The notes under the pieces: model-generated | Database searches by the model: none | What the model was told of the DNA's origin: nothing | The model's input: the letters and a program-made list of their open reading frames with translations, nothing else | Assembly: GCF_005144475.1 (NCBI RefSeq) | Contig: NZ_SWJZ01000015.1 | Coordinates: 1-64,000, forward strand | From: Rhodobacter capsulatus | Lineage (GTDB): Bacteria; Pseudomonadota; Alphaproteobacteria; Rhodobacterales; Rhodobacteraceae | DNA: 64,000 nt | Direction of reading: 5' to 3' | Shown here: piece by piece, positions 2,514 through 63,510 of the stretch | How positions within the stretch are numbered: the stretch's first letter is position 1 | How the letters are laid out: each line of letters opens with the position of its first letter | Made by a program: the position numbers and the translations under genes

Positions 2514-2738
2514 GTTTCGGGCGGATCAGGAAAGGCACCGCCTTTCCCCGCCCGCGTGGGCAACGCCTGCCCCGGGGCCGTCAGCCCCAGGCGCGACAGA
2601 GGCCAGCGCCCAGCCCCGGCGGGCGAGAAGCGCCCGCCGGGGCTGGGCGGGCGCTGGCCGAGGGCCTTTGGGCCCCCGGCGGTCATGGGGCAACTGGTCC
2701 GCGTGGCTTCGGCAATGGCCTCAGCCAAGGAGAGGGCA
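2514..2738 (+). repeat. Structured multi-hairpin repeat, copy 1
   Basis: About 220 bp between tnaA and sodB that recurs at 63292-63510. Three hairpins are visible in order: ggaaaggc/gcctttcc with a 3-nt loop (2529-2547) inside an outer gggcgg/ccgccc pairing; a long stem around loop agaag (CAGCCCC plus GGCGGGCG against CGCCCGCC plus GGGGCTG) extended by ggccagcgcc/ggcgctggcc; and a short hairpin with loop tttg (about 2661-2675). The end carries tcggcaatggcctc, also conserved. In copy 2 the middle stem has different bases on both sides that still pair. Strand is assigned to match copy 2 beside the RAYT-like gene. Function unknown. Confidence 0.8.
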
Positions 2739-16755: not shown

Positions 16756-17067
16756 CGGCCCCGGCGCGCGGCAAGGCGGGGCGGAGGTCGGACCGGGCCA
16801 CGCGCCATGATGCCAGGCGATTGCGCCGTCCCGAGACCGGGCCGCAATGCCTCCGCCGCATCGATCTGGCTTCTGCGCGATCTTGCGGCGGCGAGGATGC
16901 CGGTCAACGGCTTTGTGCCGGGCCATCGCCGGGGCGATCCGCAGCCGCGCTTTCTCTCTGACGAAGACGCCGATCTGGCACCACGGCTGCGCCAACAATC
17001 GCGGCGGGCAGCATGGGCAACACCGCAATGCGGCTTGACGGCGCGGGACTTCGCGGGCACCTTCGCC
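16756..17067. other. Intergenic stretch without a supportable gene
   Basis: 312 bp between erpA and the first cobalamin riboswitch. A 106-codon plus frame (from 16807) runs through it but extends into the riboswitch, lacks a convincing ribosome binding site and resembles no family I know. The promoter for the riboswitch transcript must lie near its right end. Confidence 0.5.
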
Positions 17068-17260
17068 CTGATGGTTCCCGGCCAAGCCACGCGCGGCCGG
17101 GTGAAAAGGGAATACGGTGAGGTGTAGGCATCAGCCGCCAAACCCGTAACTGCCCCCGCAACTGTAAGCGGCGAGCGCCCCCCGGCAACCACTGGCCCCG
17201 ATCGCGGGGCCGGGAAGGTGGGGGAAGCCAGGACCCGCAAGTCAGGAGACCTGCCATCAG
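17068..17260 (+). promoter_or_regulatory. Cobalamin riboswitch 1 (upstream of Btu-like ATPase)
   Basis: Closing stem ctgatgg (17068-17074) / ccatcag (17254-17260) is a perfect complement. In order inside: ggttcccggcc, gtgaaaagggaatacggtg, ctgcccccgcaactgtaa, ccactgg...gggaaggtggg, and the B12 box agtcaggagacctgcc (17240-17255). All are canonical blocks of the cobalamin riboswitch. It controls the B12-uptake remnant downstream. Confidence 0.96.
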
Positions 17261-17302
17261 CGTCATCAACCACCGGGCGGGGTGTCCCGGAAGGAGCATG
17301 CG

Positions 17303-25741: not shown

Positions 25742-25852
25742 GGTCCCTGCCCTCCTCGGTCATGCCTGAACAGGGCGGGGAAATGGCGACACGAAAAAAG
25801 GCGGCGGGCCTTCGGCGTCACGTCCCCCCGGTGCACCCCGCCCGAAACGTCT

Positions 25853-26032
25853 GCGATGGCAGGTCTCCTGGCTTGCGGGTCATCGCGCCCCCGGACCTTC
25901 CCGGGTCGGTGACCCAGTGGCATTTCCGGCGTTGCTCGTCGCTCACAGTTGCGGGGGCAGCCGCGGCCTTGCCCCGAAAGGCGCACCGCATTCCCTTTTC
26001 AGGCGCAGCCCGGAAGACGGCGCCACCATCGC
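25853..26032 (-). promoter_or_regulatory. Cobalamin riboswitch 2 (AppA-like gene)
   Basis: Minus-strand element closed by gcgatgg/ccatcgc (25853-25859 with 26026-26032). Reading the minus strand: tgaaaagggaatgcggtg, ctgcccccgcaactgtgagc, gccactgggtc, gggaaggtc, and the B12 box agccaggagacctgcc. The leader continues 111 nt to the AppA-like start and includes a tttttt run after a GC-rich segment, a possible terminator. Confidence 0.95.
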
Positions 26033-26206
26033 CGCAAGAATGAAAGCAACCGGCGGCGCTGTAAAGCGGGTTTGCGCCCCCGAAGGGCCGTTGCGCGGCA
26101 CTCGGTCGCAGGGCGCAGCGGCGCAATCGCCTGTCTGCACTGGCCCCGGCGGGCCTTGGGGCACGGGCGGCGGCAGCCGCGGCGGCCGCAAACGGAAAGC
26201 TACATG

Positions 26207-26235
26207 TTGACAGGAAGCGCCAATTGATTGCTATA
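26207..26235 (+). promoter_or_regulatory. Sigma-70-like promoter for riboswitch 3/nrdD
   Basis: ttgaca (26207-26212), 17-bp spacer, gctata (26230-26235), in the only AT-rich patch between the two divergent riboswitches. Expected transcription start is a few bases before riboswitch 3. Confidence 0.6.
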
Positions 26236-26242
26236 TCGTGAC

Positions 26243-26407
26243 GCTCTGGGTCTTGTGGTTCCCCCGCAAGCCAAGAGGGAAGCCGGTGCGATTCCGGCGC
26301 TGCCCCCGCAACTGTAAGCGGCGAGCGCGGCTGATCATGCCACTGGGCCCCGGCCCGGGAAGGCCAGCCAAGCTGTGACCCGCAAAGCCAGGAGACCTGC
26401 CCGGAGC
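26243..26407 (+). promoter_or_regulatory. Cobalamin riboswitch 3 (nrdD operon)
   Basis: Closing stem gctctggg/cccggagc (one G-U). Internal blocks ggttcccccgc, gagggaagccggtgcgattc, ctgcccccgcaactgtaa, gccactgggcc, gggaaggcc and B12 box agccaggagacctgcc (26386-26401). It should switch off the B12-independent anaerobic reductase when cobalamin suffices for a class II enzyme, a known logic for this riboswitch. Confidence 0.96.
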
Positions 26408-26514
26408 CTTGATGACCACCGCTGGCGGAGGGCCTTGCGGGGGCGCTTTCGGACCCGTTGCCCGGGGCCGTTTCGCGTTCCCGTCCCTGCAAAGGCCCAA
26501 GGACGAGGACCGCG

Positions 26515-37248: not shown

Positions 37249-37277
37249 CAAGGGCTGGTTGGATGGATGAGCCCTTG
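37249..37277 (-). promoter_or_regulatory. Hairpin between riboswitch 4 and gbcA
   Basis: caagggct (37249-37256) and agcccttg (37270-37277) form a perfect 8-bp stem in the gbcA leader, 30 nt before the start codon. No U-run follows, so it is more likely part of the expression platform (hiding or exposing the gbcA ribosome binding region) than a terminator. Confidence 0.5.
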
Positions 37278-37288
37278 GGCCCGGCGGT

Positions 37289-37459
37289 CTCGGGGCTGGT
37301 TTCCGGGCTTGCAAAGCGTGCTGTCGCACCCGGGCGCGGCCCCTTCCCGGACCCGGGGTCCAGTGGCCTTGCCGTCCCTCATTGCTTACCGTTGCGGGGG
37401 CAGCGCCGGTCTTGCACCGGCTTCCCAATTCTCCCGGCCTTGCGGACGGGCACCCTGAG
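37289..37459 (-). promoter_or_regulatory. Cobalamin riboswitch 4 (upstream of gbcAB)
   Basis: Minus-strand element closed by ctcgggg/ccctgag with one G-U. Blocks on the minus strand: gggaagccggtgcaagaccg, ctgcccccgcaacggtaagc, gccactggacc, gggaagggg and a slightly deviant B12 box agcccggaaaccagcc. The next gene on that strand is gbcA, 70 nt on. Its 5' end lies 72 bp after the metH stop, so transcription could come from a promoter in that gap or from metH read-through. Confidence 0.92.
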
Positions 37460-37531
37460 GCCTTCAGCCTGACAGATTGTCGCAGAGGGCGCGCGCCAAA
37501 AACGACGCGCTGTCCACGCTTTCAGACAGGA

Positions 37532-42826: not shown

Positions 42827-45010
<2,184 letters not shown>

Positions 45011-45019
45011 CCCCCTGCC

Positions 45020-46324
45020 CTAGCGGCCGACGCTGACATAGCCCTCGAAGCCCGCCTTTTTCGCATCCCTGGCGGAATAGATGTTGCGCAGATCGGCCAT
45101 GCGGGGCGTGGTCATCTTCTTTGCCAGTTTCTTCAGATCGAGGGCGCGGAATTCGTTCCACTCGGTCAGCAGCACCAGGCAATCGGCCTTCTGCGCCGCC
45201 TTGTAGGCATCGTCCATCCAATGCACGCCGGGCAGCATCTGCTGCGCCTCGCGCATGCCCTGCGGATCGACGGCGCGCACCTTCGCCCCCGCCCCGATCA
45301 GCGCGGGCACGATCGTCAAGGACGGCGCGTCGCGCATGTCATCGGTGTTGGGCTTGAAGGTAACCCCCAGAACGGTAATGGTTTTGCCATTCACCGAGCC
45401 GTCGCACAGATCGACGATCTTGTCGATCATCCGCCGCTTCACCTCGTCATTGACCTTGATCACCGTCTCGGTGATCTGCATCGGCACGGCGTGATCCTGC
45501 CCCATCCGCGCCAGCGCCTGCGTATCCTTGGGGAAGCACGAGCCGCCATAGCCCGGCCCGGCATGCAGGAACTTGTTGCCGATCCGGCCATCCAGCCCCA
45601 TGCCGCGCGCCACTTCCTTGACATCGGCGCCGACCTTTTCGCACAGCCGCGCGATCTCGTTGATGAAGGTGATCTTCGTCGCCAGGAAGGCGTTGGCGGC
45701 GTATTTGATCATCTCGGCGGTTTCCAGATCGGTGTAAAGCACCGGGAATTCGCGCAGGAAGAGCGGCCGGTAGACCTCGCCCATCACCTCTTTCGCCCGC
45801 TCCGAGGAAACGCCGACCACCACCCGGTCGGGACGCATGAAATCGTCGATCGCCGCGCCCTCGCGCAGGAATTCCGGGTTCGAGGCGACGTCGAATTCCG
45901 CCTCCGGCCGGGCCTTGCGGATCACCTGTTTCACCGCGCGGTTGGTGCCGACAGGCACCGTCGATTTCGTCACCACCACAGTGTAGCCGGTCAGCGCCGC
46001 GGCGATTTCTTCGGCCGCCGCCATCACATAGCGCAGATCGGCATGGCCGTCGCCGCGCCGCGTCGGCGTGCCCACCGCGATGAAGACCGCCGCCGCGCCA
46101 TCGACCGCCGCCGCCAGATCGCCGGTGAACGACAGCCGCCCCGCCGCCACGTTCTTCGCCATCAGCGCGTCCAGGCCGGGCTCGTAAATCGGCACCTCGC
46201 CCTGCAACAGGCGCTCGATCTTGGCCGGATCCTTGTCGACGCAGACCACGTCATGCCCGAAATCGGAAAAGCAGACCCCGGACACCAAACCGACATAGCC
46301 GGTGCCGATCATCGCAATCTTCAT
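45020..46324 (-). CDS. ugd: UDP-glucose 6-dehydrogenase
   Basis: 434-residue NAD-dependent enzyme: UDP-glucose to UDP-glucuronate for surface polysaccharides. Rossmann motif MIGTGYVGLVSGVC at the N-terminus, STVPVGTNR, NPEFLREGAAI, and the catalytic Cys in GPGYGGSCFPKDTQAL. ATG at 46324 preceded by AAAGGACTTGCG. Upstream lie exported capsule-type proteins, consistent with exopolysaccharide production. Confidence 0.96.
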   Translation of the reverse strand: MKIAMIGTGYVGLVSGVCFSDFGHDVVCVDKDPAKIERLLQGEVPIYEPGLDALMAKNVAAGRLSFTGDLAAAVDGAAAVFIAVGTPTRRGDGHADLRYVMAAAEEIAAALTGYTVVVTKSTVPVGTNRAVKQVIRKARPEAEFDVASNPEFLREGAAIDDFMRPDRVVVGVSSERAKEVMGEVYRPLFLREFPVLYTDLETAEMIKYAANAFLATKITFINEIARLCEKVGADVKEVARGMGLDGRIGNKFLHAGPGYGGSCFPKDTQALARMGQDHAVPMQITETVIKVNDEVKRRMIDKIVDLCDGSVNGKTITVLGVTFKPNTDDMRDAPSLTIVPALIGAGAKVRAVDPQGMREAQQMLPGVHWMDDAYKAAQKADCLVLLTEWNEFRALDLKKLAKKMTTPRMADLRNIYSARDAKKAGFEGYVSVGR

Positions 46325-62742: not shown

Positions 62743-62808
62743 GTCCGAACCGGCCCTGATTCCGGCCCGATTCAGATTTCGTTAACCCTGTGGGCGCAGG
62801 ATCGTTGC

Positions 62809-63273
62809 ATGAGCATCATGGACCGATTCCCGCTTCCGGGGCAGACCCGGTTCTTCACGCTCCGCCTGGCGCGGGCCGGAAGCTGTCTGCTTGTCGATCA
62901 CATCGAAGACCTGCGGGCCGCCTGGGCCGCGATGGTGGCGGATCACCCCACGGTCTGCGGCGCGATGGTGGTTCTGCCCGATCACCTGCATGCGGTGCTG
63001 ACACTGCCGCCGGGGCCGCGGGCGGTGTCGGTGCGCTGGTCGCAATTGCGCCGCGATTTCGCGGGCCGTGTGGCGCCCGAGGCGCCCGAGACGGTCTGGC
63101 AGCCCGAGATCCTGATCGAGCCACTGCCGGATGCGACCGCGGTGAACCGCGCCCTGGCCTTCTGCTGGGAGGCGCCGGTGCGGCTGGGTCTGGCGACGCA
63201 TCCCGAGGACTGGCCCTATTCCTCGCTGCACCGCGATCTGCGGATTGCCGCAAGGCGGCGGTTGGGGGTCTAG
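62809..63273 (+). CDS. REP-associated transposase-like protein (RAYT, Y1 family)
   Basis: 154 residues, short for the IS200/RAYT group. HUH motif VVLPDHLHAVL (His59, His61) is present, as is the C-terminal DWPYSSLH typical of RAYTs. In the preceding helix, where the family has Y-I-H-x-N-P-V, this protein reads FCWEAPVRLGL, so the catalytic Tyr appears replaced by Phe118 and Asn-Pro by Ala-Pro. The structured repeat copy 2 starts 19 bp after its stop. Either a domesticated or a decaying single-strand DNA endonuclease. ATG 62809; no strong ribosome site. Confidence 0.75.
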   Translation: MSIMDRFPLPGQTRFFTLRLARAGSCLLVDHIEDLRAAWAAMVADHPTVCGAMVVLPDHLHAVLTLPPGPRAVSVRWSQLRRDFAGRVAPEAPETVWQPEILIEPLPDATAVNRALAFCWEAPVRLGLATHPEDWPYSSLHRDLRIAARRRLGV

Positions 63274-63291: not shown

Positions 63292-63510
63292 CGGTTTCGG
63301 GCGGATCAGGAAAGGCACTGCCTTTCCCCGCCCGCATCGCCACGGGGTCACAGGACCGTTTCCCCAAGCCTGACAGAGGCCCGCCCCGACCTCGCGGGCG
63401 AGAAGCGCCCGCCAGGTCGGGGCGGGCGCTGGCCGGGACGCTTTGGCGCCCCGGCAGTCCGGGGACGGCTGTTTCGCATGACCTCGGCAATGGCCTCGGT
63501 CAGGGCGACC
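63292..63510 (+). repeat. Structured multi-hairpin repeat, copy 2
   Basis: Second copy of the element at 2514-2738. Identical start ggtttcgggcggatcaggaa and ggaaaggc/gcctttcc hairpin (loop act versus acc). Middle stem here is CCGACCT/AGGTCGG plus GCGGGCG/CGCCCGC around the same agaag loop, where copy 1 has CAGCCCC/GGGGCTG: compensatory changes on both sides. The third hairpin also differs but pairs (ggacgc/gcgcc around tttg). End tcggcaatggcctc conserved. Lies between the RAYT-like gene and nadE. Confidence 0.82.

What the first reader, a model, noticed from the sequence alone, without database searches (positions are those of the whole stretch)
2514..2738. Undescribed ~220-bp multi-hairpin repeat with covarying stems
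Two copies (here and 63292-63510), 60 kb apart, share start, hairpin order, loop agaag and end motif, but the long central stem differs in sequence on both sides while keeping pairing (CAGCCCC/GGGGCTG versus CCGACCT/AGGTCGG). A third hairpin covaries too. Conservation of structure over sequence suggests a functional RNA or a structured single-strand mobile element rather than chance similarity. I know no named family that fits.
Basis: seen in the sequence. Interest (0 to 1): 0.8.

Follow-up and report, generated by a model that had tools for sequence, protein, structure and literature searches.

The report
Long REP-like palindromic repeat of Rhodobacter
A 210-base DNA hairpin element sits in about forty gaps between genes of this Rhodobacter, and in closely related strains the same gap often holds a different copy pointing the other way, which known repeat families do not obviously explain.

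Summary
The two window copies belong to a family of at least 41 dispersed copies in this genome, a Rhodobacter of the capsulatus group, with strongly covarying stems (66 double-change cells against 17.6 in shuffles). Copies sit between genes, mostly at gene 3' ends by a heuristic. No Rfam family matches.

I read it as REP/REPIN-like mobile DNA, only partly like known ones: about 210 bp, no GTAG tag, and one copy 24 nt behind the genome's only detected REP-associated tyrosine transposase (RAYT) homologue. That protein models as E. coli TnpAREP but lacks the catalytic tyrosine while under purifying selection. That it, or its ancestor, spread the element is inferred, and there is evidence against it: three other genera carry the element without a detected RAYT.

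The most surprising result comes from 38 sites compared in three close genomes. Nearly every site stays occupied, but at most sites tenants differ. Where there are two different tenants they face opposite ways at 21-25 sites and the same way at 1. No near-identical donor copy was found. I know of no described process that does this; its cause is unresolved.

The parts
2518..2728 (+). Element copy 1 (the finding)
   Evidence: Aligned with 35 other own-genome copies; conserved edges CGGGCGG and GG[CT]CA; 5' pattern hit at 2518
2518..2554 (+). 5' hairpin with a 4-nt one-sided bulge (ATCA here)
   Evidence: Helices 1 and 2; pair 23-33 is GC 24, CG 8, AU 3 of 36
2601..2659 (+). Long central stem-loop
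   Evidence: Helices 3-5; 3 pairs with changes on both sides
2660..2678 (+). Third hairpin (GAGGGCCTTTGGGCCCCC)
   Evidence: Helix 6; 4 pairs with changes on both sides
2705..2726 (+). 3' hairpin
   Evidence: Helix 7; pair 209-228 is GC 19, AU 16 of 36
62809..63273 (+). RAYT/TnpAREP homologue, 154 aa, HUH kept (DHLH), catalytic Tyr position is Phe118
   Evidence: NCBIfam NF047646 81.6 bits against cut-off 80; PDB 4er8 E 3e-47 with an 11-sequence profile, Foldseek TM 0.84
62781..62787 (+). GTTAACC upstream of the RAYT start, CtrA-box-like (name recalled)
   Evidence: A TTAACC word lies upstream of most RAYT genes of the family that I looked at
63298..63502 (+). Element copy 2, 24 nt after the RAYT stop codon

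Best explanation
The repeat is a non-autonomous, structured mobile DNA element that works like a REPIN. Its folded single strand was recognised by an HUH (RAYT/TnpAREP-type) protein and inserted into gaps between genes, preferentially behind stop codons. Shown: a dispersed family, conserved folding, element-free sites in a relative, and a RAYT homologue beside one copy. Inferred: that RAYT was the mobiliser. Today's RAYT lacks the catalytic tyrosine and most residues that read the GTAG tag but is kept by selection, so it probably now binds rather than cuts, or uses another nucleophile. Copies are old (star-like divergence). Tenants of fixed sites are nevertheless exchanged, and an exchange nearly always reverses orientation. 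My guess at the cause is insertion of a second copy beside the resident on the opposite strand, as in inverted REP pairs, followed by loss of the resident; this last step is speculative. My odds: mobile DNA element 0.75, RAYT as past mobiliser 0.4.
For: At least 41 copies between genes, structure conserved with compensation. Context by GC-frame ORFs: 20 convergent, 14 co-directional, 3 divergent, 3 undetermined of 40 (a rough heuristic, some calls overlap the element, no baseline computed). Element-free orthologous sites: 14 of 38 in G009, 1 of 38 in G012, 0 of 38 in G010; at L027 in G009 and L029 in G012 only one flank was found, and L003 in G009 holds other DNA, so these three are less sure. 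One G009 site keeps a 16-nt piece of the element's 5' end, 0 of 200 shuffles; the other 12 anchored sites show nothing clear (best 12-16 of 200). The element lies 12-24 nt (hit edges) behind the RAYT in the 4 genomes of the group, on the RAYT's strand in 2 and on the other in 2. Only those 4 of 18 genus genomes carry many copies (at most about 13 places scored per genome; a few others give single or short hits). Tyr-positive RAYTs of two other genera are followed by their own repeats: G027 about 92 bp, 34 copies with the one at the gene; G035 a short hairpin, 11 further matches of 25-41 nt. RAYT dN/dS among the four genomes is 0.11-0.35 (NG86) and 0.05-0.18 (YN00).
Against: The RAYT lacks Y115 (F118 here), and E100, H101, R104 of E. 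coli TnpAREP become I103, E104, P107. The RAYT-adjacent copy is one shared site of about 40, so by my rough, uncomputed estimate its position has a 1-2% chance of arising by accident, and the four genomes are not four independent events. G067, G245 and G029 carry full or long relatives of the element but no RAYT hit, and G005 one copy without RAYT. None of the six RAYT loci checked in other genera (G218, G282, G206, G287, G027, G035) shows the element in the fetched flanks (up to 1.5 kb; cut by a contig end in G206). Seven of nine further RAYT genes have no comparable repeat directly behind them. No GTAG tag was seen at the element's foot (by eye). No recent copying is visible.
Confidence: 0.5

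Rival explanations
1. A host-functional structure: a bidirectional 3'-end element of convergent genes (RNA stabiliser, terminator aid or protein-binding site) whose presence, not sequence or direction, is under selection.
For: Near-complete occupancy of 38 sites in G010 and G012 while sequence and orientation change; placement behind stop codons and between convergent genes; orientation would be neutral between convergent genes.
Against: 14 of 38 sites without the element in G009; no T-run at the element's own hairpins and a separate terminator-like hairpin behind copy 1 (by eye); sites were chosen because G000 has the element; no transcript data.
Confidence: 0.2
2. An old mobile element spread by an enzyme other than the RAYT, now a relic; the RAYT neighbour is coincidence.
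For: Elements without a RAYT hit in G067, G245, G029, G005 and RAYT without the element nearby in the six loci of other genera checked; tyrosine lost; star-like divergence, nearest paralogue median 89-91% in each of four genomes.
Against: No candidate enzyme found: Pfam Y1_Tnp gave 0 of 11 genomes, though that model also misses the RAYT itself, so this is weak; folding and bulge resemble REPs; two other RAYTs of the family do have repeats directly downstream.
Confidence: 0.27
3. Chance similarity of two GC-rich hairpins.
For: Only that GC-rich genomes make many hairpins; the central stem alone gives short hits in other genera.
Against: 40 copies, most of them full length, E down to 1.4e-58 besides the query itself; covariation controls.
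Confidence: 0.01

Closest known systems
REPINs / BIMEs with RAYT (P. fluorescens, E. coli)
   Same: Hairpin DNA between genes, many copies, compensatory stem changes, RAYT gene next to a copy
   Different: About 210 bp and several unlike hairpins instead of two inverted 20-50 nt REPs; no GTAG tag; RAYT lacks the catalytic Tyr; other genera carry the element without a RAYT hit
TnpAREP of E. coli (PDB 4er8)
   Same: Fold, HUH motif, W97-Q98 (W94-Q95 in E. coli), D-W-P-x-S region
   Different: Y115 to F118; GTAG-reading E100/H101/R104 not kept
TIR families of TIRYTs (PMC3733652, section 16 read)
   Same: Non-GTAG repeat families linked to Y1-type proteins
   Different: Element found on one side of the gene only; terminal inverted repeats around the gene were not searched for specially
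GTAG REPs beside the RAYT genes of G218 and G206 (same bacterial family)
   Same: Lie beside RAYT genes
   Different: Typical GTAG-tagged palindromes (GTAGGGTGGGTGG, by eye), unrelated in sequence

Membership tests
REP/REPIN | High-copy palindromic repeat between genes | tested here: met
   41 to 48 copies found per genome in the capsulatus group, below the hundreds usual for REPs
REP/REPIN | 5' GT[AG]G tetranucleotide at the hairpin foot | tested here: not met
   No such conserved bases at either edge in the 40 aligned copies (by eye)
REP/REPIN | 20-50 nt unit, or two such units inverted | tested here: not met
   One unit of about 210 bp with unlike 5' and 3' hairpins
REP/REPIN | Flanks a RAYT gene of the same genome | tested here: met
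   4 of 4 genomes of the group, one shared site, downstream side only; not in the 6 RAYT loci of other genera checked
REP/REPIN | Mobilised by the RAYT | not testable with these tools
   Needs an assay
RAYT/TnpAREP | Profile match and fold | tested here: met
   NF047646 81.6 against 80; three of the four group members pass the cut-off and G010 misses it (77.4); 4er8 TM 0.84
RAYT/TnpAREP | HUH motif | tested here: met
   DHLH in all 5 sequences (four of the window group and G014)
RAYT/TnpAREP | Catalytic Tyr in YxxNP | tested here: not met
   F, F, A, A, L in the five
Rfam RNA family | Match above gathering score | tested here: not met
   Only four cobalamin riboswitches elsewhere in the window; two hits far below gathering score at the element

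The most novel reading that the evidence does not exclude
A repeat family whose chromosomal sites are fixed but whose tenants are exchanged for unrelated copies in obligatory opposite orientation, by a strand-specific single-stranded DNA process involving a tyrosine-less HUH protein that has been kept by selection. One version is that both strands of a site can receive a different copy, so that the two daughter chromosomes inherit opposite tenants.
Probability: 0.2. Interest if true: 0.88.

Novelty: new variant of a known kind. Interest (0 to 1): 0.66.

Why it matters
How REP elements move and what domesticated RAYT proteins do is still open. Here is a long, sequence-distinct relative in Rhodobacter, a tractable laboratory genus, with a single detected RAYT homologue that is catalytically crippled on paper yet conserved. 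The opposite-orientation rule is a sharp statistical signature that any transposition or recombination model must reproduce, and it can be checked at once on other sequenced R. capsulatus strains.

Tried and rejected
Functional RNA family: no Rfam hit. Outer closing stem made by the spacers on either side of the element: no more pairing than shuffled partners, rejected. Orientation bias along the G010 main contig: no pattern by eye. In-situ inversion of the same copy: rejected as the general cause, since inverted tenants average 84.4% identity, same-way tenants 93.0%, unrelated copies 84.2%; 6 of 58 inverted pairs reach 88.5% and could be exceptions. Recent copying from another site: not seen; of 41 tenants without a same-way orthologue (two of them fragments that could not be compared) none has a match above 94.3% at another site, also after adding 23 further loci (two of them short pieces, 74 and 36 nt) and two contig-end copies, and derived tenants do not share longer exact words with same-genome copies (the list of derived tenants was set by hand). 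HR gene conversion: would keep orientation, so it does not fit (reasoning only). Independent random insertions: would give as many same-way as opposite unrelated pairs, which is not seen. Ancestral inverted dimers with loss of one half: fits the two-allele pattern, but the 38 sites show single elements; a cluster with an inverted copy exists in another genus (G287). Elements on phages or plasmids: no match at E 1e-5, blastn. Not done: covariance-model search (only BLAST and pattern scans), the second structure job, VIA alignment, a terminator scan. Papers: PMC6006769 abstract, sections 8 and 12, section 15 part 1, and passages; PMC3733652 section 16 and passages; PMC8266576, PMC3116915 and PMC8632094 passages only; other titles seen in search listings only.

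Full report
OBSERVATION. A BLAST search of the window's own genome (G000, 4.22 Mb, 170 contigs) gives 40 distinct copies after removing self-palindromic and second-piece rows; only 40 candidates were scored. The strict 5'-hairpin pattern finds 36 places, one of them a further copy. I aligned the 40 with flanks and used 36 for structure (L037-L040 left out). The order of parts is constant in these: a 5' hairpin CGGGCGG-NNNN-GGAAAGGC/GCCTTTCC-CCGCCCG with a one-sided bulge, a hypervariable spacer, GACCG, a long central stem, a third hairpin and a 3' hairpin ending GG[CT]CA. Covariation exceeds both controls.

IDENTITY OF THE GENOMES. The RAYT homologue found by name lies at the same contig position as in G012 (R. 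capsulatus DSM 1710), and the contig length of the R. viridis JA737 hit equals that of G009:C4. The G010 main contig (3,738,958 bases) matches my recollection of R. capsulatus SB 1003; this was not checked.

THE NEIGHBOUR. The ORF 62809-63273 passes the NCBIfam cut-off for REP-associated tyrosine transposase by a small margin (81.6 against 80) and has no Pfam hit above cut-off (SnoaL at E 0.16). A profile of 11 sequences (window protein and ten relatives) finds E. coli TnpAREP (4er8) at E 3e-47, and an AlphaFold model (mean pLDDT 86.9) matches it best (TM 0.84). The catalytic Tyr115 corresponds to Phe118 here; the column is F, F, A, A, L in the window protein, its three close orthologues and G014. 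Residues that read the GTAG tag (listed in PMC6006769, section 12) are mostly changed (read off the alignment). dN/dS among the four closest genes is well below 1. It is the only hit in its genome with the protein and with NF047646; Pfam Y1_Tnp finds nothing in 11 genomes, but it misses this RAYT too. Quentin et al. (PMC6006769, section 8) kept only proteins with both motifs for their functional sample, so such a lineage would have been left out there.

LINK BETWEEN THE TWO. In the four genomes of the group a copy lies 12-24 nt (hit edges 19, 14, 12, 24) behind the RAYT stop codon, but this is one shared site among about 40. Within the genus only these four of 18 genomes have many copies. In other genera the link breaks. 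Among 248 genomes (three candidates scored in each) full or long relatives of the element occur in G218, G067, G245, G287 and G029, weaker ones in G206 and G282. Of these G067, G245 and G029 have no RAYT hit, and G005 has one copy and no RAYT hit; G218, G287, G206 and G282 have one, Tyr-positive in G218, G282 and G206 but not in G287. None of the six RAYT loci examined in other genera shows the element in its fetched flanks, and two are beside GTAG-type REPs instead. Conversely, behind the Tyr-positive RAYTs of G027 and G035 lies a different repeat, while the other seven genomes of that call, two of them Tyr-positive (G026, G028), show no comparable repeat. In the 394-genome pattern scan 40 genomes had a match, 31 of them a single one; the reversed-pattern control also hits 35 genomes by my count, so single matches mean little.

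SITES AND TENANTS. For 38 of the first 40 own-genome copies (two at contig ends left out) I located the orthologous site in G010, G012 and G009 by flank searches (the RAYT-adjacent site also) and fetched it. Occupied: 38 of 38 in G010, 37 of 38 in G012 (at L029 only one flank was found), 24 of 38 in G009, one of these (L031) a fragment. Nine sites were looked at in alignments and six in printed junctions. Among G000, G010 and G012 there are 112 pairs: 54 in the same orientation, 48 of them at or above 88.5% identity, and 58 inverted, 52 of them below it; unrelated copies average 84.2%, 95th percentile 89.0%. Below the cut there are thus 52 inverted and 6 same-way pairs (53 and 8 at 89.5%, 56 and 11 at 90.5%); pairs of one site are not independent. 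At the level of 37 sites, over three cut-offs, 7 sites hold one tenant, 22-25 two in opposite orientation, 1 two in the same orientation and 4-7 three; one-sided binomial p 4e-7 to 3e-6. That count treats every inverted pair as two tenants; if inverted pairs above the cut are merged as possible in-situ inversions, 21-22 sites are opposite and 1 the same, p 3e-6 to 5e-6. At the six sites printed, the spacers up to the stop codons differ between opposite tenants (by eye). Tenants without a same-way orthologue have no near-identical source among the copies compared (best 94.3%).

READING. The family behaves as old, REP-like mobile DNA. The tenant exchange is established as a pattern for these three genomes, not as a mechanism. 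The best guess, insertion of an inverted second copy beside the resident followed by loss of the resident, explains constant occupancy and reversal but not the lack of recent donors; import from unsampled strains could supply donors (R. capsulatus makes a gene transfer agent; recalled). The ancient-dimer model explains old alleles but not the absence of dimers. A host 3'-end function would explain occupancy but not the reversal.

PRIOR ART. No paper on this repeat turned up in the listings of searches of the held open-access library; subscription papers, including early R. capsulatus sequencing papers, are not covered, so I do not claim it has never been seen. Compensatory changes in REPIN hairpins and RAYT-adjacent clusters are described in PMC3116915 (passages read).

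Recounting changed some numbers (G035 matches, copy numbers, hit edges), added the merged-pair test and compared 25 further copies.

Noticed in passing
window 62781-62787 and upstream of RAYT genes in most of L041-L053, and L213, L214, L216: A GTTAACC or TTAACC word lies just upstream of most RAYT starts looked at in this bacterial family (not exactly so in L048), in L050, L052 and L213 as TTAA-N7-TTAA, like a CtrA box (name recalled); this suggests shared control.
   Followed up: partly
window 17055-17272, 25841-26045, 26231-26418, 37277-37472: Four cobalamin riboswitches in one 64-kb window, two of them back to back.
   Followed up: no
L209 (G287 C20, about 44503-45315): Cluster of three related elements, two direct with their flanks repeated and one inverted, in a genus outside Rhodobacter.
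   Followed up: partly
L046, L047 (G001, G013): RAYT homologues that have lost both the HUH and the Tyr motif yet keep an open frame.
   Followed up: no
L049 downstream (G027): A repeat of about 92 bp in 34 copies, one directly behind a Tyr-positive RAYT, probably a REPIN family.
   Followed up: no
L094 (G009): An element-free site that keeps 16 nt of the element's 5' end, the only clear remnant among 13 anchored element-free sites.
   Followed up: yes
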